Positions 27,154 through 44,435 of a stretch of 64,000 nucleotides of DNA are shown in pieces. Positions within the stretch are counted from its first letter, which is position 1. Each line of letters begins with the position of its first letter. This DNA is from Amycolatopsis sp. cg9. GTDB taxonomy: Bacteria; Actinomycetota; Actinomycetes; Mycobacteriales; Pseudonocardiaceae. A model generated the notes under the pieces. The model saw only the letters and a program-made list of their open reading frames with translations, had not been told where the DNA came from and searched no databases. The translations under genes were made by a program, and so were the position numbers. The stretch is from assembly GCF_041346945.1 (NCBI RefSeq), contig NZ_CP166850.1:2046001-2110000 (forward strand), given 5' to 3'.

Positions 27154-28169
27154 CGGCGGCGGAGCTTGGTCCGCACGGCCATGGCCAGTCCACGGAGGAC
27201 ACCGGCGCCGAAACCGCCGGCGAACACCGGCAGCAGCTTGGTGACCGCGCGGGCCTCGGGGCCGGTCGCGCCGCACTTCTTGACGACCTCGCCCGCCGCG
27301 ACCGCGCCGAGCACGCCGGCGGCCAGCGTCGTCTTCGGCTTCTTCGCGGCGAAGGCCAGGCCGATCACACCGGCCGCGAGCGCGCCGAACAGGGCGTTGC
27401 GGGCCGGACCGGGCGAAGCGATGTAGGAGTCCACGTAGGTCGTGCCGCGGAAGTAGGCCTGCTGCGTGAACTTCTTGAAGGAGTCGCGCCCGTTGTAGGT
27501 CGCGGACAGCTCCGGGGCCAGCCAGATCCGCTCGCGCTCGGCGATCCACCGCAGCATGCGGGTGTCGTCGCTGGCGAAGCGGATGTCGTCGAACAGCGAC
27601 GCGAACGCCGTCACCGAGCCTTCGAGGAGGCCGCGGCGGGCGCAGAAGAACGTCGTGCCCTTCGGGTAGACGTCGAACTCCTCGATGCCGTACGACATCA
27701 GCCGCGGGTTCGCGCAGTACTTGCGCCACGGCACCTTGACCAGCCCGGCCATGAAGCCGGCGTACGGGTTGTGCTCGGAAGCGACGTTGATGTGGCCGTT
27801 CCAGACCGCGCGCTCGGGGTGGTCGACGAGCTGGTCGCGCAGGAACGTCAGGGTGTGCTCGTCGACGATGACGCGGCTGTCGAGCAGCGCGATCCACTCG
27901 CCGGACGACTTGGCGATGCCCGCGCTCCTGGCCTCGAACCGGCCGGCGTTGGCCTGGCTGAGCACCGTGATGCCGTGGCGTTCGCGCAGGTCGTCGAGCC
28001 GCGACGGGGTGGCGTCGGTGCTGCCGTCGTCGACCACGACGACCTCGATCGGCCAGCTCGCGGCCGACGCCGAAGCGAGCAGCGCGCCGACACTGCGTTC
28101 GATCCAGTCCTGCTCGTTGTAGACCGGGATCACGACGCTGAGCGAGGGGAGGAGCGGGTTCGCACTCAC
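27150..28169 (-). CDS. GT2 glycosyltransferase
   Basis: A 339-residue enzyme. SVVIPVYNEQDWIERSVGALL and VVVVDDGSTDATPSRL form the GT-A nucleotide-binding region. ALLDSRVIVDEHTL replaces the usual DxD with DSR. The acceptor region includes RFASDDTRMLRWIAE, which supplies an ED-like acidic pair. The last 90 residues hold hydrophobic Ala/Gly helices that could anchor it to the membrane. It starts with GTG at 28169; the upstream frame is open but lacks coding character. The sugar and acceptor are unknown. Confidence 0.85.
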   Translation of the reverse strand: MSANPLLPSLSVVIPVYNEQDWIERSVGALLASASAASWPIEVVVVDDGSTDATPSRLDDLRERHGITVLSQANAGRFEARSAGIAKSSGEWIALLDSRVIVDEHTLTFLRDQLVDHPERAVWNGHINVASEHNPYAGFMAGLVKVPWRKYCANPRLMSYGIEEFDVYPKGTTFFCARRGLLEGSVTAFASLFDDIRFASDDTRMLRWIAERERIWLAPELSATYNGRDSFKKFTQQAYFRGTTYVDSYIASPGPARNALFGALAAGVIGLAFAAKKPKTTLAAGVLGAVAAGEVVKKCGATGPEARAVTKLLPVFAGGFGAGVLRGLAMAVRTKLRRR

Positions 28170-28253
28170 CGTGCCGAGGCTACCCGGCGGCCCCCGCGGC
28201 GGGTCGGCCAGTATCCTTACGCCACCGCACCCGATCCGAAATGGGCTCCTCTG

Positions 28254-29351
28254 GTGATTTCCTTCATTCTCGGCACCACCGCGGAACTGATCAAGATCGC
28301 GCCCGTGTACCACGGGATCCGCGAGCGCGGGATGCGGCCGAAGATCTGGTTCACCGCCCAGCACGTCGACGAGGTCGCGGACGTCCTCGCGGACTTGAAC
28401 ATGCCGGAGCCCGACGTCTGGCTGGTGCCGGAGGACAAGGCCCACAACCTCGAGTCGCCGGCGCAGGTGCCCGGCTGGGCCGCGCAGGTGCTGCGCACCG
28501 CCTGGAGCCGCCGCCACGAGCTGCGCGCCGCACTGACCGAGGACGGCCGCCCGCCGCTGGTGCTGGTGCACGGCGACACGTTCACCACGCCGTACGGCTC
28601 GCTGATCGGGAAGCGGATCCTCAAGTCCCGCGTCGGCCACGTCGAGGCGGGCGCGCGGTCGGGCAGCATCCTCTCGCCGCTGCCGGAAGAGCTGAACCGC
28701 AAGATCGCGGCGAAGATCGTCGACATCCACTTCGCGCCGAGCATCCGCGAGGTCAACAACCTCCGCAACGCCCGCGGCGTCGTCGTCGACACCGAAGCCA
28801 ACACGGCGATCGACGCGATGCGCCTGGCCATCAACCAACCGCTCGACGTGCCGAACCTGCCGGAGAAGTTCGGCCTGGCCACGCTGCACCGCTTCGAGCT
28901 GGTCTCGCGCCCGGACAAGTACCGCGAGGCGCTGGAGATCCTGCGCGAGCAGAGCCGCAAGATGCCGATCCTGTACATGGCCGGGGCGCCGGAGCGCGAG
29001 AAGATCCGCGCGCTGGGCATCGGGAACATCTTCGACGACCAGTTCATCGTCCAGCCGAAGATGCGCTACCTGAAGTTCCTGCCGCTGGTCGCGCGCGCCG
29101 AGTACGTCGTCACCGACTCGGGCGGCCTGTCGGCGGAGTGCTACTACCTCGGCCTCCCCTGCGCGGTGCACCGCGAGCGCACGGAAACCCCGCAGCACCT
29201 GGGCGAAACGGTCGTGCTGACCGAGATGCGCGGCGACAAGCTGCAGAACTTCCTCGACACGTACCAGAACCGGCGCGGTGAGTCCTGGATGGACAAGTAC
29301 CACCCGTCCGAGATCGTCGTGGACACCCTGGCGCAGCTCGGCTACTGCTGA
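28254..29351 (+). CDS. UDP-GlcNAc 2-epimerase-like protein
   Basis: A 365-residue protein of the UDP-N-acetylglucosamine 2-epimerase/GT-B fold. ISFILGTTAELIKIAPV is the N-terminal glycine loop, HVEAGARSG (about residues 131-139) and TDSGGLSAECYYLGLP (about 287-302) are the hallmark motifs. RTETPQHLGETVVL follows, close to the family RxxTERPE motif. It would make UDP-ManNAc or a related sugar for the adjacent surface-polymer genes. The GTG at 28254 starts the protein directly at the first strand. It is divergent from the GT2 gene with an 84-bp gap. Confidence 0.85.
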   Translation: MISFILGTTAELIKIAPVYHGIRERGMRPKIWFTAQHVDEVADVLADLNMPEPDVWLVPEDKAHNLESPAQVPGWAAQVLRTAWSRRHELRAALTEDGRPPLVLVHGDTFTTPYGSLIGKRILKSRVGHVEAGARSGSILSPLPEELNRKIAAKIVDIHFAPSIREVNNLRNARGVVVDTEANTAIDAMRLAINQPLDVPNLPEKFGLATLHRFELVSRPDKYREALEILREQSRKMPILYMAGAPEREKIRALGIGNIFDDQFIVQPKMRYLKFLPLVARAEYVVTDSGGLSAECYYLGLPCAVHRERTETPQHLGETVVLTEMRGDKLQNFLDTYQNRRGESWMDKYHPSEIVVDTLAQLGYC

Positions 29352-29464
29352 CCCGGACGGCTTCCGCCGTTCGAGTGTTTTCCCCTCCGCACGTGATCAA
29401 GCGTGACTAGGGTCCGAAGCGAGGTCACCTGAACGTGTGATCTCACGGGACTGGGGGGATCTCG

Positions 29465-32400
29465 ATGCGGTTTCAGCTGTTGGGGGCGGTGACCGCGCGG
29501 CGAGACGGGGCCGATGTCCCGCTGGGCGGGCCGAAGCCCCGCACGCTGCTCGCGGCGCTCCTGCTGGCGGAAGGCCGGGTGCTGCACGCCGACCGGCTGA
29601 TCTCGATCATCTGGGACGAGACGCCGCCGGACAGCGCGCCGGCGTTGCTGCACACCTACGTTTCGACGCTGCGGCGGGCGTTCCAGCAGCCGGACGGGGA
29701 ACCGGGCGCGATCCGCACCGAACAGAGCGGCTACCGGATCGAGCTGACCGGCTGCACCGTCGACCTGCTGGAGTTCGCCCGCCTGGCAGCCGAGGGGGAC
29801 GCGGCGGCCGGCGCGGGCGACCACGAAACCGCAGAACGGCGCTACGACCAAGCGCTCGACCAGTGGCAGGGCCCGGCCCTCGGCGGCCTCAAGTCCCGGT
29901 TCGCCGCGACGGAAGCCGCCCGGCTCGCGGACCAGCGGCTGGACGTGCTGGAGAAGCGCCTCGACTCCGCGTTCGCGCTCGGCCGCGGCGCGGAGCTGGT
30001 CAACGAGCTGACGGCGCTGGTCGCGGAGCACCCCCTCCGCGAGCGCCTCCGCGGGCAGCTGATGACGGCGTTGTGGACGGCCGGACGGCAAGCGGACGCC
30101 CTGCGGTGCTACCAAACCGGACGCGGCCTGCTCGTGGAGGAGCTCGGCGTCGAACCCGGGCCGGAGCTGCGCGCACTGCACCAGCGGATCCTGCGCGGCG
30201 ACGCGGTGCCGCCCGAGCCCGGCGCACCGGCCGCGCCGAAGTCCGAAGGGGAACCGGCGCCCGAGAACGGCGGCCCGTGCCTGCTTCCCCCGGACATCAC
30301 CGACTTCACCGGCCGGAGCACCGAGACGTCGACGCTCACCAAGCCGTCCGCGCGCCGGGTGGCGATCTCCGGGAAACCCGGCGCCGGCAAGAGTTCGCTG
30401 GCCGTGCACGTGAGCCACCTGCTGCGGGCCCGGTTCCCCGACGGCCAGCTCTACGTCGCCCTGCGCGGTGCGCAGCAGTCGCCGGTGGATCCCGTCGAGG
30501 TGCTCGGCCGGTTCCTGCGCGCTTTGGGCGCCCCCGACGGGGAACTCCCGGTGGGTCTCGACGAGCGCGTCGAGCTGTACCGGGCCCTTTCGGCGTCGAA
30601 GCGGCTGCTCGTCGTGCTCGACGACGCCGCGGACGAGCGGCAGGTGCGGCCGCTGCTGCCCAGCGGGGACGGCTGCCTGTGCGTGCTCACCAGCCGGGTG
30701 CGGCTGGCGGCGCTGGACTCGACGGAGCACATCGACCTGCGGGTCCTCGACGACGAGACCGGGCTCGCCCTGCTCACCCAGATCGTCGGCGGCACCCGGA
30801 TCGCCGCCGAACCCGACGCGGCCCGCACGCTCGTCCACCTCTGCGGCAACCTGCCGCTGGCCGTGCGCATCATCGGCGCCCGCCTCGCCGCGCGGCCGGA
30901 CTGGCGGCCGTCGCGGCTGGTGCCGAGGCTGCGCGAACAACGGAAGTTCCTGAACGAACTGGCGATCGGCGACCTCGAAGTCCGCGGCAGCCTCGCCCTT
31001 TCCTACCGCGGTCTCGGGGACCGGGAGCGGTCCGCGCTGCGCCGGCTCGGCTGGCTGGGTGTGCCGGACTTCGGCGCCTGGCTGGTGAGCGTGCTGCTGT
31101 CGGTGCCGCAGGACGACGCCGAGGACATCGTCGAAGGACTGGTCCGCGCCCAGCTGCTGGACGTGGTCAGCAACGACGGATCGGGCGTCACCCGGTACCG
31201 CCTGCACGACCTCATCCGCGTGTTCGGCTGGGAACGCGCGGAGGCGGAAGAGGACGCCGAGCAGCTGCGGCTCGCGGTCCGGCAGGCCACCGACGAGTGG
31301 TACCGGCTGGTCGAGTGGGCGTCGGGCGGCACCCCGGTGCGCGCGCTGCGGCCCGCCTCGCCGGGTCCGGCGACGACCCCCGAGCTGGTGCGCACCGACA
31401 CCCTCGGCGAGCCGCTCGCCTGGTTCGACGCCGAGCAGGCGGCGCTGGTGCACATCGTCGAACGCGCCAGTGAACTCGGGCTGGCCGACACGGCCGTGCG
31501 GCTGGCCACCGCGCTGTGTTCGTCGTCCTTCGCCGTGGAGAACCACTTCCACCACTGGTGGCGGACCCACACGGCCGCGCTCGAAGCGGCCCGGCGAGCG
31601 GGCGACCTCTCCGGTCAGGGCCTGCTGCTGTCCGGCCTCGGCTGGCTGCGCAGCGAGCAGGACCGGCTCGACGAAGCCGCCGACTACTACGCGCAGGCCC
31701 TCCAGGCGTACGCCGAGGTCGACGACGCCCGCGGCACGGCGGTCACGAGGCTGATGCTGAGCAGCGTCCGGCGCGAGCAGGCCCGGCTCCCCGAAGCGTT
31801 GGAGCTGCTGGGGGAAGCGCTTCCGGTGCTGAACGAGCTCGACGACCCCCGTGCGGAGGCCAGGGGGCACCACGGCCGCGGCATGGTCCTGACCGAGCTC
31901 GGCCGACTGCCCGAAGCCCGCCACGAGCTGGAGCTCGCCCTCGCCCGGTACCGGGCGCTGCCGGACGACCACGGCGTCGCGCTCGTCCTGCGGTCCACCG
32001 GCATCGTGCACCGCGCGGCCGGCCGGCTCGTCGAGGCCGAACTGGCGTGCGCGCGGAGCCTGACCCTGCTGCGGGAAGTCGGCGACCGGCTGATGATCGC
32101 CTACGCCACCCAGGCCCTCGTGAAGGTCCACCTCAGGCAGGGCCGCCGGGACACCGCCGAGCTGCACGCGGAACTCGAAGACGCGCTGGCCACGTGCCGC
32201 GAAATGCAGGACGGCTTCGGCCAGGCGCTGATGCTCCGGACCCTGGGCGAGCTCGACCTCGTCCGCGGCGAACCGGACTCCGCTCGTCGGCACCTCGAAC
32301 TCGCCCTCACCTGGTGCGACGCGCTTTCCCTCCCGCTGTGGCGCGCGCGCAACCTGCGGGACCTCGCGGCGGCCCAGCGAGCGCTGGGCAGGCACGCGGA

Positions 32401-32524
32401 ATCCGACGCCACCCACGCCGAAGCGCAGGCCCTCTTCACGAGGTACGGCGCGCGGGAGGCCACCGAACCCCGGATGGCCGTGAAGACCGCTTCCGGGAAA
32501 GCGGTCTTCACGGAACACCACTAG
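29465..32524 (+). CDS. SARP/AfsR-type regulator with NB-ARC and TPR domains
   Basis: A 1,019-residue regulator. An OmpR-type winged-helix DNA-binding domain (about residues 1-95; MRFQLLGAVTARRDG start) is followed by a BTAD helical domain (about 96-240). The STAND/NB-ARC ATPase has Walker A GKPGAGKSS near residue 305 and Walker B LLVVLDDA. A long TPR region spans about 640-1000. AfsR-type SARPs activate secondary-metabolite or developmental genes by binding heptamer direct repeats at 11-bp spacing. Such an array lies 2.6 kb away at 35112-35173. The ATG at 29465 follows a GGGGGGA. A 13-bp hairpin is embedded in its last codons. Confidence 0.9.
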   Translation: MRFQLLGAVTARRDGADVPLGGPKPRTLLAALLLAEGRVLHADRLISIIWDETPPDSAPALLHTYVSTLRRAFQQPDGEPGAIRTEQSGYRIELTGCTVDLLEFARLAAEGDAAAGAGDHETAERRYDQALDQWQGPALGGLKSRFAATEAARLADQRLDVLEKRLDSAFALGRGAELVNELTALVAEHPLRERLRGQLMTALWTAGRQADALRCYQTGRGLLVEELGVEPGPELRALHQRILRGDAVPPEPGAPAAPKSEGEPAPENGGPCLLPPDITDFTGRSTETSTLTKPSARRVAISGKPGAGKSSLAVHVSHLLRARFPDGQLYVALRGAQQSPVDPVEVLGRFLRALGAPDGELPVGLDERVELYRALSASKRLLVVLDDAADERQVRPLLPSGDGCLCVLTSRVRLAALDSTEHIDLRVLDDETGLALLTQIVGGTRIAAEPDAARTLVHLCGNLPLAVRIIGARLAARPDWRPSRLVPRLREQRKFLNELAIGDLEVRGSLALSYRGLGDRERSALRRLGWLGVPDFGAWLVSVLLSVPQDDAEDIVEGLVRAQLLDVVSNDGSGVTRYRLHDLIRVFGWERAEAEEDAEQLRLAVRQATDEWYRLVEWASGGTPVRALRPASPGPATTPELVRTDTLGEPLAWFDAEQAALVHIVERASELGLADTAVRLATALCSSSFAVENHFHHWWRTHTAALEAARRAGDLSGQGLLLSGLGWLRSEQDRLDEAADYYAQALQAYAEVDDARGTAVTRLMLSSVRREQARLPEALELLGEALPVLNELDDPRAEARGHHGRGMVLTELGRLPEARHELELALARYRALPDDHGVALVLRSTGIVHRAAGRLVEAELACARSLTLLREVGDRLMIAYATQALVKVHLRQGRRDTAELHAELEDALATCREMQDGFGQALMLRTLGELDLVRGEPDSARRHLELALTWCDALSLPLWRARNLRDLAAAQRALGRHAESDATHAEAQALFTRYGAREATEPRMAVKTASGKAVFTEHH
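32480..32511. terminator. Hairpin inside the 3' end of the SARP gene
   Basis: GTGAAGACCGCTT (32480-32492) and AAGCGGTCTTCAC (32499-32511) form a perfect 13-bp stem with a 6-nt loop. It is entirely coding (last residues of the SARP) and sits at the convergent junction with the PIG-L gene, so it probably ends transcription from both sides. Confidence 0.6.
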
Positions 32525-33435
32525 CAGCCGTTGAAGTCGCCCGGCGGCACCCAGGGGATGCCCGGCCAGAAGATGCGTCCTTCCGGCCGGTACTGCTTGC
32601 CCATCACGTTGTCCCACGACCAGGGGCTGATCTGGTAGTCGAACGGCTTGTAGGCGTTCCAGATCCGCTGCTTGCGGTCCCGCCAGTAGCCGCCGACGTT
32701 GTCCGGGTAGTCGGTGATGACGTAGCCCTGGTACTCGTCGCGGCGGATCAGGGTGTTGCCGGCGCCGTCGACGTCCGCGTCGGCCGCGAGGATCGCCCCG
32801 GCGACGTGGTCGACGTTGTCGGCCACGCCGTCACCGCGCCTTTCCCGGTGCCCGATGGTGCTTTGCGTGCGCAGGTAGTCGGGCTGGACGTAGTCGATGA
32901 TCGAGCGCAGCATGCCGACGAACGAGTCCTTCGTGTACGCCGGCCGGTAGTCGATCGGCTCAGCGACGTACGAGTCGTCGTGCAGCATCCGGTACAGGTC
33001 ACCGCAGTTGTCCTCGGGCCCGGCGGCCGCGTGGATGTAGGTGAACACGAGGTGGACGTTGGTCCCGTCGAGGTGGTCCACGGCGACGGGGTGGCCGCCG
33101 AACCACATTTCCTCGTAAGTCCAGGAGTTCGGCACGCCCGCCGTCTCGGCGTAGGCGGCGTGCTCCCCCTGCACCCGGTTGTCGGCGTAGTCCATGCCGC
33201 ACGGATCGTGGCTCTCACACGGGATTTCCCCCGCGGTGAGGTAGGTGACCCACACGTTGTACCCGGCCTGCACGTCGGACGCGATGTCCGGGTTCATGAA
33301 CAGCAGGTCGTCGTCCTGGTGCGCGGAGAAGCTGAGCGTCGTGGTGGTGTCCGCGGAAGCGGGACTGTGCACCGCGGCGACGGTCGCCGCGGCCAGCACC
33401 AGCGCGGCGAGCGGCCGCGCGATCTTCGTGCGCAT
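32521..33435 (-). CDS. Secreted PIG-L family deacetylase-like protein
   Basis: A 304-residue secreted protein. A signal peptide (about residues 1-28, ending SPASA) is followed at once by SFSAHQDDDLLFMNPDI, the metal-binding AHPDDE motif of PIG-L/LmbE deacetylases in the form AHQDDD common in secreted versions. A later His motif lies in NVHLVFTYIHAAAG. Family members remove acetyl groups from GlcNAc-type sugars, so an extracellular or cell-wall amino sugar is a reasonable substrate. The ATG at 33435 follows AAAGGAAG. It lies 17 bp downstream of the endopeptidase gene, so the two may be one operon. Confidence 0.85.
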   Translation of the reverse strand: MRTKIARPLAALVLAAATVAAVHSPASADTTTTLSFSAHQDDDLLFMNPDIASDVQAGYNVWVTYLTAGEIPCESHDPCGMDYADNRVQGEHAAYAETAGVPNSWTYEEMWFGGHPVAVDHLDGTNVHLVFTYIHAAAGPEDNCGDLYRMLHDDSYVAEPIDYRPAYTKDSFVGMLRSIIDYVQPDYLRTQSTIGHRERRGDGVADNVDHVAGAILAADADVDGAGNTLIRRDEYQGYVITDYPDNVGGYWRDRKQRIWNAYKPFDYQISPWSWDNVMGKQYRPEGRIFWPGIPWVPPGDFNGC

Positions 33436-33452
33436 GACGTGCTTCCTTTCGT

Positions 33453-34400
33453 TCACTGGCCCCAGTTTTCGATGTCGGGGGCGCCCATGTCGGTGTTCCA
33501 GTACCAGTGGGTCAGGGTGCCGTCGGTGGCACGGCCGTAGACGTTTTCCTGGCTGTCGGTGGCGAACCCGGTGGGGTTGGCGCCGAGGTTGCCGCCCCAG
33601 TTGTCGTGGCGGGGCTGGTTGTCTTCGGGGGTCCAGTACCAGTGGCCGAGCTGGTTGTCCGGGGTGCGGGCGAACACGTGCTGCTGGTCCTGCCACACGT
33701 ACGCCACCGGGTTGCCCTGGATCGCCGCCCCCAGCGGCTCGTCGACCACCTCTTCGGCCGGGGTCCAGTAGAAGTGCTTCAACGTCCCGTCGGTGCCACG
33801 CGCGAACACGTGCTGCTGCTCGCCGAACGCGTACCCGGTCGGGTCACCGGCGAGCGTGCTCGACCCCCAGATCCCGTAGTTGGGGTCCGCGTCGGTCGGC
33901 GTCCAGTACCAGTGCGCCAAGTGCCCGTCGGTCGTCCGGGCGAAGACGTGCTGCTGATCGCCCCACACGTAGGCCACCGGGTCGCCGGCGACGCTCTGGG
34001 GCTGGGTTTCCTCGACCGTGCCCGTGTCGGGGGTCCAGTAGAGGTGCTTGAGTTTGCCGTCGGTGCCGCGGGCGAAGATGTGCTGCTGGTCCCCGAAGGC
34101 GTAGCCGGTGGGGTTGCCGGCGATGTCGTCGGCGCCCCACTGCTCGAAGTTCGGGTCGGCGTCCGTCGGGTACCAGTACCAGTGCCCGATGGTGTTGTCG
34201 GTCAGCCGCGCGAAGACGTGCTGGGTGTCGCCCGAAACGAACGCGACCGGTTCCCCGGCGAGCGCCGCGGGGTAGGACTCCGATTCGATGGACTCACCCG
34301 CGTTGTACGAGTGCAGCAGCGAGCCGTCCGCGCCCTTGGAGAACAGGTGCTCCTGGGTCCCGTACCGGTACGACGCCGAGGCCGCGATGCCCTCGTCGCC
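33453..34400 (-). repeat. 948-bp inverted duplication, copy 1 (DUF346 propeller)
   Basis: This segment encodes the last ~315 residues of the endopeptidase. Its translation differs from copy 2 (35885-36832) at only about 14 residues, with no length difference. Similarity runs through the stop codon to TGAACGAAAG and then ends. The two copies are in opposite orientation, 1.5 kb apart. Confidence 0.9.
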
Positions 34401-35039
34401 CATCGGGGCCGGCTGGCCGATGTCGTCGACGATGTTGCGGTAGCGCATCGGGGTGAACGTCCGGATGTAGGACTGCGCGGTCCACGCCCGCTCGACCGCG
34501 GGGTTGCCGTAGTCGAACTCCTCGCGGACGATCGGCTGCGTCTTCGCGGCGTCGTTCCAGGCGAGGAAGAGCGCGATGTGCCCGTCACGCCACAGCGCGT
34601 CGCCGGGCAGCAGGTCCGCCCAGCCGATGGCGTCCATCCGCGTCGGGAGGCTGTAGGTGGTCAGGCTCGTGCTGAGGTTCCAGGCCATCGACACGAACCC
34701 GGAGCAGTCCTGGCGGTAGGTGCCGTACTGGTTGGTGTGGTACGCGGACTGGCTGTACATCACGTGCTCGTCGATCCACGACCTCGATCTGGTCAGCACC
34801 TCGGAGCGCGTGATCTGGCCGTTCTCGACCGAGGTCATCGCCCGCGCGGCGGCCTTCGGATGACTCGGCACGCCCGCAGTGCCTTCGTGCGGGAGCGCAC
34901 CCGGGTGGGCGGGGTCGTAGTACGCGGCGGCGGCCGCCGGGCCGAGCGGGTGGGCCTGTGCGATCGCGGGAGCGGCACCGGCGATCGCGAGCGAGGTCAG
35001 CACGGCGGCCAGGACGGCGCCGGTGCGCTGGACGGTCAT
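33453..35039 (-). CDS. Secreted NlpC/P60-like peptidase with seven-repeat DUF346-type propeller
   Basis: A 528-residue secreted protein. The signal peptide covers about residues 1-31. The NlpC/P60-like catalytic region (about 70-200) has QDCSGFVSMAW with Cys112 and DGHIALF with His154, in the order of Cys-His peptidases that cut peptidoglycan stem peptides. From about 214 to 528 there are seven repeats of about 45 residues, each with a (H)VFAR-x-(T/P)D-x-x-L-x-HWYW core. This matches the DUF346 repeats of PLL-type seven-bladed lectins, so glycan binding is likely. The ATG at 35039 follows GGGAGGA. It is divergent from a glucosaminidase gene with the same propeller. Confidence 0.85.
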   Translation of the reverse strand: MTVQRTGAVLAAVLTSLAIAGAAPAIAQAHPLGPAAAAAYYDPAHPGALPHEGTAGVPSHPKAAARAMTSVENGQITRSEVLTRSRSWIDEHVMYSQSAYHTNQYGTYRQDCSGFVSMAWNLSTSLTTYSLPTRMDAIGWADLLPGDALWRDGHIALFLAWNDAAKTQPIVREEFDYGNPAVERAWTAQSYIRTFTPMRYRNIVDDIGQPAPMGDEGIAASASYRYGTQEHLFSKGADGSLLHSYNAGESIESESYPAALAGEPVAFVSGDTQHVFARLTDNTIGHWYWYPTDADPNFEQWGADDIAGNPTGYAFGDQQHIFARGTDGKLKHLYWTPDTGTVEETQPQSVAGDPVAYVWGDQQHVFARTTDGHLAHWYWTPTDADPNYGIWGSSTLAGDPTGYAFGEQQHVFARGTDGTLKHFYWTPAEEVVDEPLGAAIQGNPVAYVWQDQQHVFARTPDNQLGHWYWTPEDNQPRHDNWGGNLGANPTGFATDSQENVYGRATDGTLTHWYWNTDMGAPDIENWGQ

Positions 35040-35111
35040 GGGGTTCCTCCCGGGTGAACGCTCCGCCGTCCTCGGTGCGGCGGAGTCGCCGGGAAACCGT
35101 GTCGCGGCAGG

Positions 35112-35173
35112 CTTCAAGTCCGCCCCAAAACCGCTTCAACGCGACTTGCAGGCGGCTTGGAGCCGACTTGGAG
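35112..35173. promoter_or_regulatory. Heptamer array on an 11-bp phase, SARP-operator-like
   Basis: Heptamers CTTCAAG (35112), CTTCAAC (35134), CTTGCAG (35145), CTTGGAG (35156) and CTTGGAG (35167) all fall on one 11-bp register; the position at 35123 is degenerate. They lie in the 179-bp divergent region between the two propeller hydrolases. SARP-family activators bind direct heptamer repeats with exactly this spacing, and a SARP gene is nearby. Binding is inferred. Confidence 0.55.
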
Positions 35174-35218
35174 ACCGGGCTTCCAGGCTTGGCCCATCGC
35201 CACGACCTGGAGGACACC

Positions 35219-36832
35219 ATGACCCGCACCACCACCCGGATCACCGTCGGCGGGCTCGGCGCGCTGATCAGCACGCTGGCCCTCGTCGCGCCCGCTACGG
35301 CCGCCCAGCCGACGACGAGCGACCCGGGTACGAGCACCACGACCCAGGAAGAACAGCGGTCGGCCGCGATGAGAGACGCGGCCGTCAAGGCCGGCTTCCA
35401 GGACGACTACGTCGCCGCGGCCGGCCCCGCCGCGCAACGGGTCCGCGACGACTTCGACATCCCGGCTTCGGTGACCGCCGCCCAGTCCATCCTGGAGTCG
35501 GACTGGGGCCGCAGCACGCTCTCGGTCAACGACCGGAACTACTTCGGCTTCAAGTGCACCTCGCCGACCAACCCCGGCCCGTTCGCGAAGGGCTGCGCCC
35601 CGTACCCGACCACCGAGTGCGTGCCGGCGCCCTGCCACCCGGTCAACGCGTACTTCCGCTCCTACGACTCGATGGAGAACTCGTTCCGCGACTACGGACG
35701 GCTCCTCACCACCAGCTCGATCTACTCGAGCGCGCTCCCGTACCGCCACGACCCGGACGCCTTCATCCGGGAGGTGAGCCGGCACTACGCCACCGACCCC
35801 AACTACGCGAACAAGGTCATCTCCCTGATGAACACCTACAACCTCTACCGCTTCGACTCGGGCACGGCGCCAGGCGCTTCGCTCGGCGACGAGGGCATCG
35901 CGGCCTCGGCGTCCTACCGGTACGGGACCCAGGAGCACATGTTCTCCCGCGGCGCCGACGGAGCCTTGCTGCACTCCTACAACGCGGGTGAGTCGATCGA
36001 GTCCGAGTCCTACCCGGGTGCGTTGGCGGGCGAGCCGGTGGCGTTCGTCGCGGGCGACACGCAGCACGTCTTCGCCCGGCTGACCGACAACACGATCGGC
36101 CACTGGTACTGGTACCCCACCGACGCCGACCCGAACTTCGAGCAGTGGGGCGCCGACGACATCGCCGGCAACCCCACCGGCTACGCCTTCGGGGACCAGC
36201 AGCACATCTTCGCCCGCGGCACCGACGGCAAACTCAAGCACCTGTACTGGACCCCCGACACGGGCACGGTCGAGGAAACCCAGACCCAGTCCGTCGCGGG
36301 TGACCCCGTCGCCTACGTCTGGGGCGACCAGCAGCACGTCTTCGGCCGCACCACCGACGGCCACCTCGCCCACTGGTACTGGACCCCCACCGACGCCGAT
36401 CCCAACTACGGCACCTGGGGTTCCAGCACACTGGCCGGTGACCCGACCGGGTACGCGTTCGGGGAACAGCAGCACGTCTACGCCCGCGGCACCGACGGCA
36501 CACTCAAGCACTTCTACTGGTCCCCCGACGAAGAGGTGGTCGACGAACCCCTCGGCGCGCAGATCCAGGGCAACCCGGTCGCCTACGTCTGGAACGACCA
36601 GCAGCACGTGTTCGCCCGCACCCCGGACAACCAGCTCGGCCACTGGTACTGGACCCCCGAAGACAACCAGCCCCGCCACGACAACTGGGGCGGCAACCTC
36701 GGCGCCAACCCCACCGGGTTCGCCACCGACAGCCAGGAAAACATCTACGGCCGTGCCACCGACGGCACCCTGACCCACTGGTACTGGAACACCGACATGG
36801 GCGCCCCCGACATCGAAAACTGGGGCCAGTGA
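35219..36832 (+). CDS. Secreted GH73-like glucosaminidase with seven-repeat DUF346-type propeller
   Basis: A 537-residue secreted protein. After a signal peptide (about residues 1-29, ending ATAA) comes a glucosaminidase/FlgJ-like domain (about 50-215): TAAQSILESDWGRS carries the likely catalytic Glu93, and NYFGFKC, YDSMENSFRDYGRLL and DPNYANKVISLM are family features. It would cleave the peptidoglycan glycan strand. Residues about 223-537 are the seven-repeat propeller, about 95% identical to that of the divergent NlpC/P60 protein. The ATG at 35219 follows GGAGG. A 16-bp terminator hairpin follows the stop. Confidence 0.88.
   Translation: MTRTTTRITVGGLGALISTLALVAPATAAQPTTSDPGTSTTTQEEQRSAAMRDAAVKAGFQDDYVAAAGPAAQRVRDDFDIPASVTAAQSILESDWGRSTLSVNDRNYFGFKCTSPTNPGPFAKGCAPYPTTECVPAPCHPVNAYFRSYDSMENSFRDYGRLLTTSSIYSSALPYRHDPDAFIREVSRHYATDPNYANKVISLMNTYNLYRFDSGTAPGASLGDEGIAASASYRYGTQEHMFSRGADGALLHSYNAGESIESESYPGALAGEPVAFVAGDTQHVFARLTDNTIGHWYWYPTDADPNFEQWGADDIAGNPTGYAFGDQQHIFARGTDGKLKHLYWTPDTGTVEETQTQSVAGDPVAYVWGDQQHVFGRTTDGHLAHWYWTPTDADPNYGTWGSSTLAGDPTGYAFGEQQHVYARGTDGTLKHFYWSPDEEVVDEPLGAQIQGNPVAYVWNDQQHVFARTPDNQLGHWYWTPEDNQPRHDNWGGNLGANPTGFATDSQENIYGRATDGTLTHWYWNTDMGAPDIENWGQ
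35885..36832 (+). repeat. 948-bp inverted duplication, copy 2 (DUF346 propeller)
   Basis: This copy encodes the propeller of the glucosaminidase and mirrors 33453-34400 on the other strand without insertions or deletions. The start of strong similarity is sharp, at the GDEGIAASASYRYG segment, just after the catalytic domains, which are unrelated. Confidence 0.9.
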
Positions 36833-36836
36833 ACGA

Positions 36837-36872
36837 AAGCGGGCCGTTCACGAAGACGTGAACGGCCCGCTT
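36837..36872. terminator. Strong bidirectional hairpin terminator
   Basis: AAGCGGGCCGTTCACG (36837-36852) pairs perfectly with CGTGAACGGCCCGCTT (36857-36872) around AAGA. It lies between the convergent glucosaminidase and pseudoprotease genes. It is the longest perfect stem in the window (16 bp). Confidence 0.85.
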
Positions 36873-36884
36873 CGGCTCAGCCGA

Positions 36885-38924
36885 TCAGAGGAACACCGCC
36901 TGCGCGGCGCTGAGCGTGCCGCCGCTGTTCCACTTGCCGCCGCGGTTGTCGAGCGCGCCGTTCTGCCCCGCGTGCCAGTAGAACAGGCCGGTGTTCGAGT
37001 TCCCGTAGTCGTAGCTGGCGATCACGTCCGCCCGGCCGTCACCGTCGATGTCCGGCGCCGTCCACTGCGACTTGGCCCACGACCAGTTCCCCGCGCCGCT
37101 GTCCCACTTGGTGACCGGGGCGTCGAAGCCGTCGCCCGTCGCGTGCCAGGTCGAGAACGTGGTGTCGGCGTTGCCGTTGTCGTAGGCCGCGCCGATGTCG
37201 ATGCGGCCGTCACCGTCGAAGTCGCCGGTCACGAAGCGCGCCTTGGCCGGGGTGAAGGTCAGGCCGTTCCACTTCACGCCCTTGTCGTCGAACTTGCCGG
37301 CCGCGTTCGCGGTCCAGAGGAACAGGTTCGCCGTGTTGTTGCGGTAGTCGTAGAAGGACGCCAGGTCGGCGCGGCCGTCTCCGGTGAAGTCACCCGCCAC
37401 CCACGTCGACTGGGCCAGGCCCCAGACCCCGGCGGCCGTGGTCCACTGGGTCACCGGCGCGTCGATCCCGGTCGCCGTGGCGTGCCAGGTGAGGAACGAC
37501 ATGCTCGCGTTCCCGTTGTCGTAGGCGGCACCGATGTCGGTGCGGCCGTCGCCGTCGAAGTCGCCGGCCACGAAGCGCGCCTTGCTCGGCGAGAAGTTCG
37601 CGCTGTCCCACTTGACGCCCTGCGCGTCGAACCCGCCGGCGGCGTTGGCGTACCAGAGCCAGATGGTCGAACTGTTGTTGAGGTAGTCGTAGATCATCGC
37701 GAAGTCGCTTCGGCCGTCGCCGTTGAAGTCACCGGTCAGCCAGCGCGCCTGGCCGGCGTTCACGGCGCCGTTCCCGCTGTCCCACTTGAGCGCGGGGTTG
37801 CCGAGGATCGGGGACTCGGCCGACCCCGGGCCGAGCGAGGGCCAGACGTAGAGGCCGGTCCGCGCGTTCTTGAAGTCGTACACCGCGCCGACGTCTTCCA
37901 GGCCGTCACCGGTGAAGTCGGTGCCCTTGGACAGCGGCGTCGTGGCCGAGACGACGGCCGACGGCGCACCGGCCGGGCCGGTCGCCGGGGTGGCGACGAC
38001 GCGGTAGTACCGCGTCTGCTTCGCCGGCAGCTGCTGCTGGGTGTACGACAGCGACGAGGTCGTGGTGAGCAGGTGGGCGGCGTCGACCGGGACGTCGGAG
38101 GTCGCCGAACCGTAGACGGCGTAGCTGGCGTTGTCCGCCGCCGGCAGCCCGGGCCAGCTCACGACGATCGTGTGGCCGATGCCCTTGGCCGTGGGGGTGA
38201 CGACCGTCTGCCGGATCCAGGCGACGACGTCGTCGGTCCGGGCCGCGGTGCTCCCCTGCCGGGTCTCGGTCTCGCCGAAGCAGCCGTGCTGCCAGGAAGC
38301 GCTGCTGACACCGACCAGTTCCGCGCGGCCGGAGACCTCGCGGAACGCCGGGCCCCCGGCGTCGCCGCGGCAGGTGTCCGCGCCGGCGTCCCCGGTGAGG
38401 CTCGCCGTGGTGGCGGTGTTCGCGCCGGCGGTGAAGACCGCGCTGTGCAGCTTGTCGGGCACCCACTCGGTGTCGGTGCGGCCGAAGCCCGCGACCCGCA
38501 GCTTCTCGCCGGTGGCGGGCGCCGTGGCCGACAGCGAAATCGGGGTGACGTCGGTGATCGGGGCCGCGAGCCGGGCCAGCGCGAGGTCGCGGCCGGCGGC
38601 GACCACCAGCCCGGAGACACCGACGGCGTGCCCGGCGGTCCCGGCGAGGTCGGTCCGCCCGACGACGGCCGTGGTCGCCTTCGCCGGCGCCCCGCCCTGC
38701 GGGTTCTCCGGGAAGCAGCTGGCGGCCGTGGCGACCCAGTCCGGCGCGACGAGCACGCCGCTGCAGGCCCGGCCGTCCATGCTGAGCTTGGCGGTGAAGC
38801 CGTAGGTCCCGTCGGCGGCGACCGAGCTGTGCGACACCGCCGACGCCGGTACGGCGGCGAGCAGCCCGGTCACCAGCAGCACACCGCCGATCGCCGTTCT
38901 GCCTGCTGTACGTGAGCGATCCAC
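36885..38924 (-). CDS. Secreted trypsin-fold pseudoprotease with FG-GAP repeats
   Basis: A 679-residue secreted protein. The signal peptide covers about residues 1-29. A trypsin-like S1 fold (about 35-240) has RACSGVLVAPDWVATAASC, where the catalytic His of TAAHC is Ser69; the Asp is kept (GRDLALARL, Asp113); and CRGDAGGPAF has Ala189 in place of the catalytic Ser. The enzyme should therefore be inactive. A fibronectin-III-like segment (about 245-330) is followed by six FG-GAP/VCBS repeats with DxDGDGxxD calcium motifs (about 333-679). Binding or scaffolding in the cell wall is more likely than proteolysis. It converges on the glucosaminidase gene. Confidence 0.85.
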   Translation of the reverse strand: MDRSRTAGRTAIGGVLLVTGLLAAVPASAVSHSSVAADGTYGFTAKLSMDGRACSGVLVAPDWVATAASCFPENPQGGAPAKATTAVVGRTDLAGTAGHAVGVSGLVVAAGRDLALARLAAPITDVTPISLSATAPATGEKLRVAGFGRTDTEWVPDKLHSAVFTAGANTATTASLTGDAGADTCRGDAGGPAFREVSGRAELVGVSSASWQHGCFGETETRQGSTAARTDDVVAWIRQTVVTPTAKGIGHTIVVSWPGLPAADNASYAVYGSATSDVPVDAAHLLTTTSSLSYTQQQLPAKQTRYYRVVATPATGPAGAPSAVVSATTPLSKGTDFTGDGLEDVGAVYDFKNARTGLYVWPSLGPGSAESPILGNPALKWDSGNGAVNAGQARWLTGDFNGDGRSDFAMIYDYLNNSSTIWLWYANAAGGFDAQGVKWDSANFSPSKARFVAGDFDGDGRTDIGAAYDNGNASMSFLTWHATATGIDAPVTQWTTAAGVWGLAQSTWVAGDFTGDGRADLASFYDYRNNTANLFLWTANAAGKFDDKGVKWNGLTFTPAKARFVTGDFDGDGRIDIGAAYDNGNADTTFSTWHATGDGFDAPVTKWDSGAGNWSWAKSQWTAPDIDGDGRADVIASYDYGNSNTGLFYWHAGQNGALDNRGGKWNSGGTLSAAQAVFL

Positions 38925-39082
38925 CAGAGTTCCCCCTCATCGTTTCGCGAAGCGCTTTCCGCCCCTCGGGGCACATCGCGAAAGGTAGACAAGTTTTTAC
39001 CGAGCAAGGCGGTGACACATATCACATTTTGCCTATGGGGTGGTCAAGTAGCATCCGAATCGGAATTCAGGGGAGGAAATAC

Positions 39083-39559
39083 GTGAAATCTGTCAATCGC
39101 CCGTTCGGCGCACTTGTGCTGACCGCCGCCGCGCTCGTCGCCGGCCCCACCGCGGCCACCGCGGCCGCCGACGACACGCCCCCGCCCATCGTCGAGGACT
39201 ACGACTACCCGGGCGCCGACCAGATCTTCGCCGAGCACGGGATCCGCCTGCTCAAGGGCGACGGCCACATCCTGTTCGCCGACTGCGCCACCAGCGGAAA
39301 CCGGGTCGAGGTGTGGAGCCGCACCAACGACGCGACGTTCTGCTTCCGCGTCACGGCGAACAAGGGTTACCTGAGCCTCGACCTCGCCAAGGTCTACCTC
39401 ATCAAGGCCGACGACCACGCCCTCAAGGCGACGATGATCGTGAAGGGCGTCCCGAAGGTCGTCGACATCGAAAAGAACAGCTGGACTTCGGTCGGCGAGG
39501 GCGCGGACCCGCAGAACGGGCCGTCATCGCTCGTCGAGCTCAATTCCGGCCCGGCCTGA
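39083..39559 (+). CDS. Small secreted protein, function unknown
   Basis: A 158-residue protein. A signal peptide (about residues 1-28, ending ATAAA) precedes an acidic segment (DDTPPPIVEDYDYPGADQIFAEHGIRLLKGDGHILFADC) and a beta-rich C-terminal part with two cysteines (FADC, TFCFRV), which may form a disulfide. I do not recognise a family. The GTG at 39083 is preceded by GGGAGG at 39071. It is divergent from the pseudoprotease gene; the 158 bp between them are comparatively A+T-rich and include an 8-bp inverted repeat (38943-38950 with 38976-38983). It ends at a hairpin with TTTAT after it. Confidence 0.65.
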   Translation: MKSVNRPFGALVLTAAALVAGPTAATAAADDTPPPIVEDYDYPGADQIFAEHGIRLLKGDGHILFADCATSGNRVEVWSRTNDATFCFRVTANKGYLSLDLAKVYLIKADDHALKATMIVKGVPKVVDIEKNSWTSVGEGADPQNGPSSLVELNSGPA

Positions 39560-39573
39560 TCGCATTCTTACGT

Positions 39574-39604
39574 GCGGCTCACCGGTCAGGTACCGGTGAG
39601 CCGC
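39574..39604. terminator. Bidirectional hairpin terminator
   Basis: GCGGCTCACCGGT (39574-39586) and ACCGGTGAGCCGC (39592-39604) form a perfect 13-bp stem, followed on the + strand by TTTATC. It serves the secreted-protein gene and overlaps the last six codons of the immunity-candidate gene on the other strand. Confidence 0.75.
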
Positions 39605-40050
39605 TTTATCGCTGTCGAAAAATTTCGTCCGGACAGTTCGGTCATCTTCTCGAAGAATTCGAGCCCTCCGGTGACGATGGCTGAAAGCAACTCCTCTTCA
39701 CCGGCGACCGAGGTGCGGCGGAAGTCCTTCCCGGCCACCGTGATCCGAAGCAGGTTCCGCGGGACCGGCTCGAGCGAAATGTCGATCGACTGATCCGGGA
39801 ACGACGTCACGGCTCGCCCGTCCCGGCGGTAGTCGCCGATGAGCTGAGCGACGAAGATCCACAACAGCTCGATGGTCGAGTACAGGTCTTCGTCGAGCAG
39901 GGCGACCCCGTTGACGGTCAACAAGATCGCGCCACCCGGATCGTCGACCCGCTGCTTCGGCGGCAACTCGGTGCAGTCGAGAACGTCGACGAAGCAGAAG
40001 TCCCGCTGCCCGACGTCGAGTACGGTCCGTACCCGCTCCACCGTGCCCAT
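39586..40050 (-). CDS. Candidate immunity protein for the upstream ALF-repeat toxin
   Basis: A 154-residue cytosolic protein with no signal peptide. It has an alpha+beta pattern: FCFVDVLDCTELPPKQRVDD, LLTVNGVALLDEDLYSTIELLWIFVAQLI, then strands ending LLRITVAGKDFRR, and a C-terminal helix. I do not recognise the family. It starts (ATG 40050) 8 bp after the stop of a polymorphic-toxin-like gene on the same strand, which is the standard position of an immunity gene. The function is inferred from that position only. Confidence 0.55.
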   Translation of the reverse strand: MGTVERVRTVLDVGQRDFCFVDVLDCTELPPKQRVDDPGGAILLTVNGVALLDEDLYSTIELLWIFVAQLIGDYRRDGRAVTSFPDQSIDISLEPVPRNLLRITVAGKDFRRTSVAGEEELLSAIVTGGLEFFEKMTELSGRNFSTAIKRLTGT

Positions 40051-40058
40051 CACACCTC

Positions 40059-43000
40059 TTACTTCGGGTAGAACTGCACGACCTTGCCACCGTCGACCGT
40101 ACCTCGGTACATCACGCCGTTGACGAGGCCTTCGATTTTGGTACTGGCGTTGGTACCGCCGTTCGCGATGATCTTCGCTTGGTTCTGGGTGAGTACCTGG
40201 CGGATCGCGTCCTCGATGTCCGGGATGGTCATCCGCGCGTCGAAGAAGCTTTGATCCGTCTTGAAGCTGCCGTCCCAGTACTTCGGGTGGTGTCGTTCGA
40301 GGATGTGCTTGAGGTAGTCCTGGTTCAGCCTCGCCTCTTGACCGCCGACCTGGAACGCCTTGCTCGTCCAGCCCGACAACACACCCAACGACCGCCCGGG
40401 GTACAAACCCAGCTTGTCGACGACCACTCCGGCCGCGCGAAGCTTCAGCATCCGCTGCAGCAGCCTGCTGAACGGCTTCCCGATGCCCGCTTCCTGCGTG
40501 ATCATCAGGTGGCCGCCGAGGGCCTTCAGCTGGCTCCGCAGCGCAGCGCTGCACGAGCCGCCCTTCTCGCAGTACTCCCGCAGCAGCAGGTCCGAGAACT
40601 CGGCGCCGAGGGGTTTCGCGCTCTCGTACTCGTCCGCGTGCTCGGTGATCCACGCGTCGAAGTTGCGCCCGATCGCTTCGCACGCCGACAGCCCGTAGTC
40701 CGCGAACGGCAACACGAGCCCGTTGACCAGGCAGGTGCCGTCGGTGAACAGCACCGTCACACCGTTCTCGAACTCGGCGACCCGGAAGCGCTGCGGGGGT
40801 CCGTTCAACTGCTCGTTGTTGTGCGTCCGCAGGAACACCTCGACCGCTTCGGCCGCGGCGTCCGCCGCCTCCGACGCGCTCTTGCCCGCGTCAGCGGCTG
40901 CCTTCCGGGCGTCTTCGGCCTCGCTCGCGGCCCACTGGGCCATCGAGCGGGCGACCGCGGCCGAGTGCGCCGCCTTCGCCGCGGAGTCCGCGGCCCGGGC
41001 CGCGGCCTGCTGCGCCGTCGCGGCCGCCTGCCGTGCCTGCTTCGCCGACAGCGCCGCCTGTTCCGCCGACGCCTGCGCCGCGGCGGCGGACGCCTTGGCC
41101 TGGTTCGCGTAGTTCCCGGCCTCGGTGGCCGACTGGCGCGCCTGCGCCGCATAGCCCGCGGCCTCGTCGGCCGCGTGGCGCGCGGTTGCCGCGGCCGCGG
41201 CCGCCCACGAAGCGGACTCCTGGGCCGACGCCGCGGACGCCGCCGCTTCGGAGACGTAGCGCTGGACGACCGCGACGTGCGCGGCGGTGTCCTGGTCCCG
41301 GCGCTGCGCCTGGGCCTTGCCGACCTCCAAGAACGCACGCAGCTCGTCGTCCGGGCCGGCGAGGGTGATCTGCGCCGCCGCCTTGACCTCGGGGCCGCCG
41401 GTCGCCAGCGCCTGCGCGACGGCGATGCGGTCGTCCTTCTGCGCGGCGGAGAACTGGCCGGTGCGCAGGAACGCCCGCCGGTCGTCGGCCGAGCCGTCGA
41501 GCGCGGCCTGCGCGGCTTCCTTGGTGGCCGGGCCGCCGGAAGCCAGCAGCTGCGCGATCGCCGTCCGCTCGTCGTGCTCCTTGCCCGGGTACGGCTGGGT
41601 CTTCAGGAACTCGTTGACCTGGCCGTCGGTCCCGCTCAACGCGGCGAGCGCGGCCTGGGCCAGCGCGGTGTTCTCGCTCTGGGCGAGGTGGCCGACCCGC
41701 GCGCGGTCGTCCTGGAACGCGGCGGCGGTCAGGCCGCCGGCGACGTACGCGACGACGTCGTCGTCGGAGCCGCCGAGCACCGCTTCGGCACGGGCCCGGC
41801 TGATCGGCCCGGCTGCCGACAGCTGCTTGACGGCGATCTTGCGGCCGTCGGTGACCACGGTCGCCCGGGGTGCGCCGGGCGCCGCGGCTTCGGCCAGCAA
41901 GCGCTTCGCTTCGGCGTCCATCCGATCGGATTCCGGGGTGTCCCACGGCACTTCGGCCGGGATCACCGCGGTTTCGGTGCGCAGGGCCTGGGCGAGCTCG
42001 ACGGCTTCGTCGGTTTCCGTCGCCAGGCGCTCGGCCTCCGCGTGGCGGGCCACCTCCTGGGTCCGGCTCGCTTGCGCGGCCGCCGCTGTCGCCGCGTCGG
42101 CGGCTTCCTTGGCGGCCCGGGCGTGCGCTTCCGACTCGGTCGCCGCCTTGTCGGCTTCACCGGCGTGCGCCGCCGCTTCGTCCGCGGCCGCCGCGGCCGC
42201 GTCGGCGTGCTGGGCCGCGCTGAGGGCGGCCGTACGCGCTTCCTGGGCGGCCGATGCGGCCTCGGCGGCCAGCGCACCGGCCGCGTTCGCGGCCCGGGTG
42301 GCCCGCGCCGCCGCCCGCTTGGCGTCGGCCGCGGCCCTCTTGGCCCGCTCGGCCTGCGCTCCCGCCGCGGCGGACTGGCCGGCGGCCGCGTCCGCCGCGT
42401 CGCCCGCCTTCTGCGCGTTCGAGGCGGCCGAGGACGCCGCCTGCACCGCCGCGCCCGCGGCCCTGGCCGCGTCGCCGACCGCCACCGCGGCGTCCGCCGC
42501 GAGCCGGGCGCTGGCCGCGGCCTGCCGAGCTCCGATGGCGGCCTTGCGGGCGTCGTCGGCCTTGCCGGCGTCGGTCCTCGCGTCGGCCGCCGCGCGCTGC
42601 GCCGCACCCGCGGCCCGGCCGGCGAGCACCGCGGCCACGGCCGCGCGCTGGGCCGCGGTGGCCGCGACCTTGGCCGCCTGCGTCGCCTCGTTGGCCGCGC
42701 CGATGGCCTCCCGCGCCGCCGCGGCGGCCCGCGTCGCGGCGTCGGCCGCCCGGCCGGCCGCGTTCGCCGCCTTGACCGAGTCGTCCTTCGCCGCGGCCGT
42801 TTCCGCCGCCGCCGTCTCGGCGGCCTGGCGAGCCAGGTCGGCGGCTTGGACCGCCCGCTCCGACGCCTGCTTCGCGAGCGTCGTTTCGGTCGCCGCGCGT
42901 TCGCTTTCTTCCTTCGCCGCCGCCGCGAGGCTGGCCACGGTCGCGACTTCGTCGTCCCGCTCGCGAGCCGCGTACTGGCCGCTCTCCAGGAACTCCTGCA

Positions 43001-43655: not shown

Positions 43656-43759
43656 CGCGGTCAACCCCCCAGTCGGCGAACGTCGTTCGCCCGGGGAATC
43701 GCCGCCACCGAAGTGGACCGCGCAGCCGCTGCGGCATCCCTCCCCGGACGCCGGATCGG

Positions 43760-43788
43760 ACTTTAAGGGCGGCCCACCCGCGGGTCAA
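43760..43788 (-). promoter_or_regulatory. Promoter of the ALF toxin gene
   Basis: On the minus strand TTGACC (43788-43783) and TAAAGT (43765-43760) are separated by 17 bp, a good housekeeping -35/-10 pair, about 105 bp upstream of the toxin start codon. The hairpin arms CCGCGGGT/ACCCGCGG (43778-43785 and 43798-43805) overlap the -35 and could end recR transcription. Confidence 0.55.
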
Positions 43789-43838
43789 TGATTCTTTACC
43801 CGCGGCACCGGGCTACCGGTGATCTTCCGTCGAACGGC

Positions 43839-44435
43839 CTAGAGCGCCCGGCGACCGGAAAGCGCCCGCCCGAGCGTCAGCTCGTCGGCGAACTCGAGGT
43901 CGCCGCCCATCGGGAGGCCCGAGGCCAGCCGCGTCACCGTCAGGCCCGGGAAGTCGCGCAGCATCCGGACGAGGTACGTCGCGGTCGCCTCGCCCTCGGT
44001 GTTGGGGTCGGTCGCGATGATGATCTCGGTGATGTCGTGCTCACCGATCCGCTTGAGCAGCTCGCGCATCCGCAGCTGCTCCGGGCCGATGCCCGACAAC
44101 GGGTCGAGCGCGCCGCCCAGGACGTGGTAGCGGCCCTTGAACTCGCGCGTGCGCTCGACCGCCAGGACGTCCTTGGGCTCCTCGACCACGCAGATGACCG
44201 TGAGGTCGCGGCGCTCGTCGCGGCAGATGCGGCAGGTCGGGTGCTCGGAGACGTTGCCGCAGATCTCGCAGAACTGCACGCCCTCCTTGACCTTGCCGAG
44301 CACGTCCTGCAGCCGCGCGATGTCGGCCGGGTCGGTGCCCAGCAGGTGGAACGCGATCCGCTGGGCGCTCTTCGGCCCGACCCCGGGCAGCCGCCCGAGC
44401 TCGTCGATCAGGTCCTGGACGACACCTTCGTACAA
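43839..44435 (-). CDS. recR: Recombination mediator protein RecR
   Basis: A 198-residue protein acting with RecF/RecO to load RecA at gaps. The N-terminal HhH region is [21 protein letters not shown]. The zinc-finger cysteines are in [17 protein letters not shown] (about residues 55-71). The TOPRIM domain contains [15 protein letters not shown] and [14 protein letters not shown]. The start is a TTG at 44435, chosen because the protein then begins [14 protein letters not shown] exactly like mycobacterial RecR. It lies 5 bp after ybaB, the usual actinobacterial arrangement. Confidence 0.97.

What the first reader, a model, noticed from the sequence alone, without database searches (positions are those of the whole stretch)
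33453..36832. Inverted 948-bp duplication giving two different peptidoglycan hydrolases the same propeller
An NlpC/P60-like peptidase and a GH73-like glucosaminidase, divergently transcribed, share a C-terminal domain of about 315 residues that differs at only about 14 positions with no indels, while the catalytic domains are unrelated. Similarity ends about 10 nt after the stop codons. This implies recent duplication or ongoing gene conversion between inverted copies, and a shared wall target for two complementary cutting activities.
Basis: seen in the sequence. Interest (0 to 1): 0.7.

Follow-up and report, generated by a model that had tools for sequence, protein, structure and literature searches.

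The report
Inverted gene pair sharing one propeller
Two back-to-back genes for different cell-wall-cutting enzymes carry mirror-image copies of one lectin-like propeller; the copies appear to overwrite each other, and in one related species the DNA between them lies flipped.

Summary
In detail: 33446-34405 and 35880-36839 are a 960-nt inverted repeat, 91% identical, without indels; 14 residues of the shared domain differ. The domain is a PLL-lectin-type seven-bladed propeller of DUF346 repeats, fused to an NlpC/P60-like and a GH73 hydrolase. The duplication is probably old: silent divergence is 0.59 and 0.84 in two blocks but 0.03 and 0 in two others. At third positions, differences cluster within 3 of 4 testable genomes and in 0 of 50 between-genome pairs. 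Six of 80 genus genomes carry the pair; grouping the propellers by gene is rejected. The best result: in G065 the 1.5-kb centre is inverted between colinear flanks, both breakpoints inside the propellers, so GH73 instead of NlpC adjoins a PIG-L deacetylase gene. Some other actinomycete proteins pair up similarly. I infer homologous recombination: gene conversion plus occasional crossover, known processes acting here on one domain shared by unrelated enzymes. Flipping within a strain, an assembly error in G065 and a shared wall target remain untested.

The parts
33446..34405 (-). inverted repeat arm 1: propeller of the NlpC-type gene, its stop codon and 7 nt past the stop codon
35880..36839 (+). 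inverted repeat arm 2: propeller of the GH73-type gene, its stop codon and 7 nt past the stop codon
33453..35039 (-). NlpC/P60-like hydrolase with C-terminal seven-bladed DUF346 (PLL-type) propeller, 528 aa
   Evidence: R-x-DCSG and HIALF-type motifs in homologues
35219..36832 (+). GH73 glucosaminidase (catalytic part nearest the GsmA model, below its cut-off) with the same propeller, 537 aa
   Evidence: PF01832 E 9.5e-30 and seven stretches of PF03984; NF038016 E 3.8e-59, 200.6 of 240 bits; fold
35040..35218 (.). divergent intergenic region, presumably with both promoters; part of the centre that is inverted in G065
   Evidence: promoter role inferred
34406..35879 (.). unique centre between the arms (most of two catalytic regions and the intergenic region); inverted relative to both flanks in G065
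36122..36283 (+). low-divergence tract 1 in arm 2, read as converted (1 mismatch in 162 nt; counterpart 34002-34163)
36596..36839 (+). low-divergence tract 2 in arm 2, read as converted, running through the stop codon (1 mismatch in 244 nt; counterpart 33446-33689)
32521..33435 (-). PIG-L family deacetylase with a signal-peptide-like start (my reading), 17 nt downstream of the NlpC-type gene; an in-frame GTG (33456-33454) overlaps the upstream stop
   Evidence: PF02585 E 4e-8; junction
36837..36872 (+). strong hairpin just after arm 2, probable terminator; a similar inverted sequence follows the distal arm in G042, G048, G065 and G044 (by eye)
   Evidence: (z -7.49)
29465..32524 (+). BTAD/NB-ARC/TPR regulator, left flank
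36885..38924 (-). trypsin-like protease with FG-GAP repeats, right flank; found in the stretches fetched from G042 and G048, not in those from G044, G062 and G065

Best explanation
A C-terminal propeller came to be carried by two neighbouring wall-hydrolase genes as an inverted duplication (probably from the NlpC-type to the GH73-type gene; the direction is inferred). Since then the two ~950-nt arms have acted as substrates for homologous recombination. Non-reciprocal events (gene conversion) copy patches of one propeller over the other, so one lectin-type propeller serves two unrelated catalytic domains. A crossover between the arms can flip the 1.5-kb centre; this leaves both reading frames intact, exchanges propeller parts between the two genes and changes which hydrolase gene lies directly upstream of the PIG-L deacetylase gene. 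Shown: the repeat, patchy identity beyond chance, paralogues closer than orthologues in several species, and an inverted centre in one assembled genome. Inferred: RecA-type mechanism, the propeller as anchor to a wall or surface glycan, co-transcription with PIG-L, and selection for keeping both copies alike.
For: dS 0.59, 0.03, 0.84, 0 in successive blocks. Longest-run test: global p 0.028 in the window genome, 0.0002 in G042 and G062; no between-genome pair reached 0.05. Clustering at third positions: p 0.0002 in 3 of 4 testable genomes, 0 of 50 between-genome pairs under 0.01. G065 pair: one silent difference in 942 nt. Grouping by gene rejected. The bases at the stop of the window's GH73 copy (TGAACGAAAG) match its PIG-L side, where the distal side of G042, G048 and G065 has TAA. 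Inversion in G065: window 27000-34400 (+), 33457-36839 (-), 35885-36880 (+), then recR (also 13). Co-oriented alignments of 16.6, 12.1 and 7.5 kb in G042, G048 and G062. For the inferred direction: an NlpC-propeller gene beside the same kind of regulator in G226 and G384, and propeller-free GH73 genes in Actinokineospora and A. rifamycinica.
Against: G048 shows no significant tract (global p 1; p 0.06, third positions 0.12) and its copies are closer to orthologues, so conversion is episodic. The last block (712-945) is also the least diverged between species (5-13 of 78 third positions) and has only 7 in G048, so part of tract 2 may be a slow region, although the tests use polymorphic sites only. 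With all sites, 10 of 50 between-genome pairs also clustered at p under 0.01, 9 of them with the distant G062. Only 1 of 5 resolved genomes is inverted and it could be an assembly error. Propellers differ more between close species at silent sites than the catalytic parts, so another source of variation, perhaps foreign DNA, is not excluded. A. rifamycinica's distal arm also ends in TGA, with other bases after it. Nothing here tests binding.
Confidence: 0.78

Rival explanations
1. Recent duplication: the GH73 gene acquired the propeller lately, and separately in each lineage.
For: Within-genome copies are often the most alike, e.g. G062 93.7% against at most 80.0% to the others.
Against: Same junction and same tail-out inverted arrangement in the five resolved species; blocks with dS 0.59 and 0.84 beside blocks near 0 in one pair.
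Confidence: 0.05
2. No exchange: purifying selection alone keeps two old copies alike.
For: dN between the copies is low, 0 to 0.04.
Against: Silent sites are identical within tracts yet differ between species. G065 has one silent difference in 942 nt while it differs from the other close species at 20-27% of third positions.
Confidence: 0.02
3. Propeller segments are replaced by recombination with DNA from other species, and this, rather than exchange between the two local copies, makes the mosaic.
For: Silent divergence of propellers between the close species is 1.7 to 3.4 times that of the catalytic part of the same gene (my ratios).
Against: Import would not by itself make the two local copies identical to each other; between-genome pairs show no clustering at third positions (0 of 50 under 0.01, 2 under 0.05). 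It may act in addition.
Confidence: 0.1
4. The inverted order in G065 is an assembly artefact of near-identical arms; only conversion is real.
For: Arms are 99.9% identical over 942 nt. In A. rifamycinica (G044) two contigs end at the same repeat and the centre was not found.
Against: In G065 the locus lies in one contig of 10.4 Mb, which suggests long reads; the read type is unknown to me.
Confidence: 0.15
5. A dedicated site-specific recombinase inverts the segment as a phase switch.
For: Inverted repeats around a centre that presumably holds promoters.
Against: No recombinase among the 15 window proteins scanned with Pfam (other genes of the window were not scanned); the arms are long homologous coding repeats, not short sites.
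Confidence: 0.03

Closest known systems
PLL-family seven-bladed beta-propeller lectins (PLL, PHL; Photorhabdus)
   Different: Here it is the C-terminal domain of wall hydrolases, 22-24% identical to these lectins; sugar binding unknown. The passages seen of PMC6943638 and PMC12203525 describe lectins without an enzyme part.
GsmA-type GH73 hydrolases (sporangiospore maturation, NF038016)
   Same: Catalytic domain matches with E 3.8e-59.
   Different: 200.6 bits, below the 240 cut-off, and a propeller follows. The GsmA function is known to me here only from the model's name; no paper on it was found's listing.
Concerted evolution of paralogues in prokaryotes (PMC6053082: outline, abstract and three passages seen)
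   Same: Paralogues closer to each other than to orthologues; the paper's mtrA pair also involves fusion and domain shuffling.
   Different: As far as the passages show, mostly whole-gene duplicates such as tuf; here only one domain of two genes with unrelated catalytic parts.
Inversions between oppositely oriented hsdS genes of Mycoplasma pulmonis (as told in passages of PMC3077401)
   Same: Inversion with breakpoints inside two ORFs exchanges protein domains.
   Different: Those act at a site-specific recombination site and reshuffle DNA specificity; here the arms are long and similar, and the exchanged domain is nearly the same on both sides.

Membership tests
PLL-type seven-bladed propeller | seven DUF346/W-motif blades | tested here: met
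   7 stretches of PF03984 in each protein
PLL-type seven-bladed propeller | fold | tested here: met
PLL-type seven-bladed propeller | binds fucose or O-methylated sugars | not testable with these tools
   needs a binding assay
GH73 glucosaminidase | PF01832 above curated cut-off | tested here: met
   104.2 bits against 30.2
GsmA equivalog (NF038016) | score above 240 bits | tested here: not met
   200.6 bits
NlpC/P60 peptidase | PF00877 match | tested here: inconclusive
   no match for the window protein at E 0.1; 4 of the 40 members of A1 match, a set that also holds GH73 and amidase proteins
NlpC/P60 peptidase | conserved Cys and His motifs (motif recalled) | tested here: met
   R-x-DCSG in 11 of 11 homologues checked, an H-x-x-L/I-F motif in 9 of 11
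PIG-L deacetylase (PF02585) | score above curated cut-off | tested here: met
   34.3 bits against 28.2
Concerted evolution by gene conversion | paralogues closer than orthologues | tested here: met
   G065, G062, G042 and, with contig-end caution, G044; not G048; window mixed
Concerted evolution by gene conversion | clustered tracts of identity | tested here: met
   3 of 4 testable genomes
Phase-variable invertible DNA | both orientations exist | tested here: met
   between species only: 4 of 5 resolved genomes one way, G065 the other
Phase-variable invertible DNA | both orientations within one strain | not testable with these tools
   no reads available

The most novel reading that the evidence does not exclude
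The locus is a homology-driven reversible switch: flips of the centre alternately place the peptidase-type and the glucosaminidase-type hydrolase gene in one operon with the PIG-L deacetylase, while gene conversion maintains the arms needed for flipping. Other actinomycete wall-enzyme pairs with near-identical propellers would use the same device.
Probability: 0.15. Interest if true: 0.75.

Novelty: new variant of a known kind. Interest (0 to 1): 0.52.

Why it matters
It is a natural case in which recombination appears to keep a shared targeting-type domain alike in two unrelated enzymes, with a mosaic of conversion tracts and an inverted relative to study. It gives a small system for asking whether inverted orientation favours homogenisation of a domain. 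If other pairs prove linked and inverted, it would suggest that several wall-cutting activities of actinomycetes are held to one glycan target.

Tried and rejected
Blade-to-blade conversion as the source of the high silent divergence: some windows of the GH73 copy were 87-90% like another blade, but a codon-permutation test gave p of 0.07 or more in 10 of 11 copies (the eleventh, A. rifamycinica, 0.01 uncorrected), so I do not claim it.

Search for similar pairs in 397 genomes of the order with P0041: 28 of 397 matched, 29 of the 37 listed matches only by the N-terminal part, and at most 3 candidates per genome were scored, so it says nothing about how common pairs are.

The centre of the A. 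rifamycinica locus was sought and not found, so its orientation is unknown.

The structural second look spans the propeller only, not the NlpC-type catalytic part. A plain phmmer search of the propeller against PDB sequences found nothing at E 0.001; the profile found PLL.

Paper searches for such a case listed none that by title or abstract start describes it; (DUF346) listed 15 papers, none on wall hydrolases by title. This covers open-licence papers only.

Full report
What is there. Two divergent genes, 33453-35039 (-) and 35219-36832 (+), end in the same domain. The repeat is 960 nt, 91% identical, ungapped, with 85 mismatches; 74 codons differ, 59 silently, and 14 residues of the shared domain differ. 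The own genome gave no third copy.

Old duplication, young patches. Silent divergence between the window's two propellers is 0.59 (alignment columns 1-234), 0.03 (235-399), 0.84 (400-711) and 0 (712-945). For comparison, the single-copy catalytic parts and PIG-L differ by 0.12-0.30 between the close species, whole propellers by 0.38-0.62. The longest-run test on 313 polymorphic sites of 11 rows gives global p 0.028 for the window pair, 0.0002 for G042 and G062 and 1 for G048; it cannot judge G065, whose copies do not differ at these sites. A second test on third positions gives p 0.0002 in G000, G042 and G062 and 0.12 in G048; of 50 between-genome pairs 0 fall under 0.01 and 2 under 0.05. With all sites, 10 of 50 between-genome pairs fell under 0.01, 9 of them with the distant G062. 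The long identical stretches differ by species: the last 459 nt in G042, 80-326 and 676-905 in G062, all but one base in G065, so I read them as separate events. A caution: the last block is also the least diverged between species.

Species comparison. 14 of 80 genus genomes have some match and 6 carry the pair at 75% or more; 13 of 390 family genomes match at E 1e-20, those 6 among them. Paralogue identity against the best value to another species: G065 99.9 against 91.3; G044 100 against 91.3, but both copies sit at contig ends; G062 93.7 against 80.0; G042 93.5 against 92.1; window 91.2 against 92.1 and 91.0; G048 88.5 against 90.7 and 91.0. Holding the five NlpC propellers together costs 359 log units (p-AU 8e-53); the copies of the window, G042 and G048 are poorly resolved among themselves.

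The inversion. In G042, G048 and G062 long alignments run through the locus in the window's order. In G065 the left flank with the regulator and PIG-L (window 27000-34400) is followed by 33457-36839 in reverse, then the right end of arm 2 with its hairpin, then recR (proteins). So GH73 adjoins PIG-L and the NlpC-type gene lies distal, and both breakpoints fall inside the arms. The bases after the stop stay with the flank: TGAACGAAAGGAAG on the PIG-L side, the hairpin on the distal side. The window's GH73 stop region carries the PIG-L-side form where the distal side of G042, G048 and G065 has TAA, which fits a conversion tract running past the stop (direction inferred); A. rifamycinica's distal arm ends in TGA with other bases after it.

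Wider pattern. Picking by eye proteins with equal contig lengths (probably one contig) gave four pairs with different N-terminal domains. Three share a propeller more alike within the pair than with the others I compared: A. silviterrae P0005/P0008 95.1% (72.3% and 72.2% to P0006), Micromonospora sp. URMC 103 P0041/P0152 95.6% (79.4% or less), Actinoplanes sp. NPDC089786 P0035/P0144 80.9% (64.3% or less). P0152 and P0144 are amidases by Pfam, P0005 has the NlpC-type Cys motif; the other N-terminal domains are unassigned (transglycosylase-like is my reading; the source calls P0041 a metalloendopeptidase family protein). In the fourth, Kribbella P0101/P0156, neither is in the other's top five (not compared directly). 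Whether these pairs are adjacent or inverted is unknown. A same-strand tandem pair in G226 and G384 is not homogenised: orthologues 91%, paralogues 49-51%. This fits, but does not prove, a role for orientation or starting similarity.

Left open. Propellers differ at silent sites between the close species 1.7 to 3.4 times as much as the catalytic part of the same gene (my ratios). Reassortment of old copies by conversion may explain it; import of foreign DNA is not excluded, and blade-to-blade conversion was tested without support. Whether flips occur within a strain, whether the G065 order is an assembly error, whether PIG-L expression follows the orientation, and what the propeller binds are unknown. 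Recombination between duplicates and inversion at inverted repeats are established processes; the new element is their action on one domain shared by unrelated wall hydrolases.

Noticed in passing
window 33453-36832 against L044-L049: Silent divergence between close species is 1.7 to 3.4 times as high in the propellers as in the catalytic part of the same gene, and low again in the last ~230 nt.
   Followed up: partly
window 36885-38924; L052-L056, L058, L059: The trypsin-like neighbour carries FG-GAP repeats, while related trypsin domains in G050, G185, G187 and G188 are followed by DUF346 propellers; GH73 domains carry FG-GAP repeats in Lentzea and Nonomuraea. Secreted enzymes seem to swap propeller types.
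   Followed up: partly
window 40059-43664 and 39586-40053: ALF-repeat protein with a weak C-terminal EndoU match (below Pfam's cut-off), followed by a small unmatched ORF; looks like a secreted toxin-type gene with a possible partner.
   Followed up: no
L047 5193-5750: A. rifamycinica has a propeller-free GH73 gene next to the BTAD regulator of this locus.
   Followed up: no
window 36880-43841: No DNA match to this block in the stretches fetched from G065 and A. rifamycinica, where recR follows the distal arm directly; G048 lacks 39036-43830, and G062 has no match beyond 36832.
   Followed up: no
window 44792-45721: An Amidase_3 N-acetylmuramoyl-L-alanine amidase gene lies near recR, another wall hydrolase close by.
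   Followed up: no
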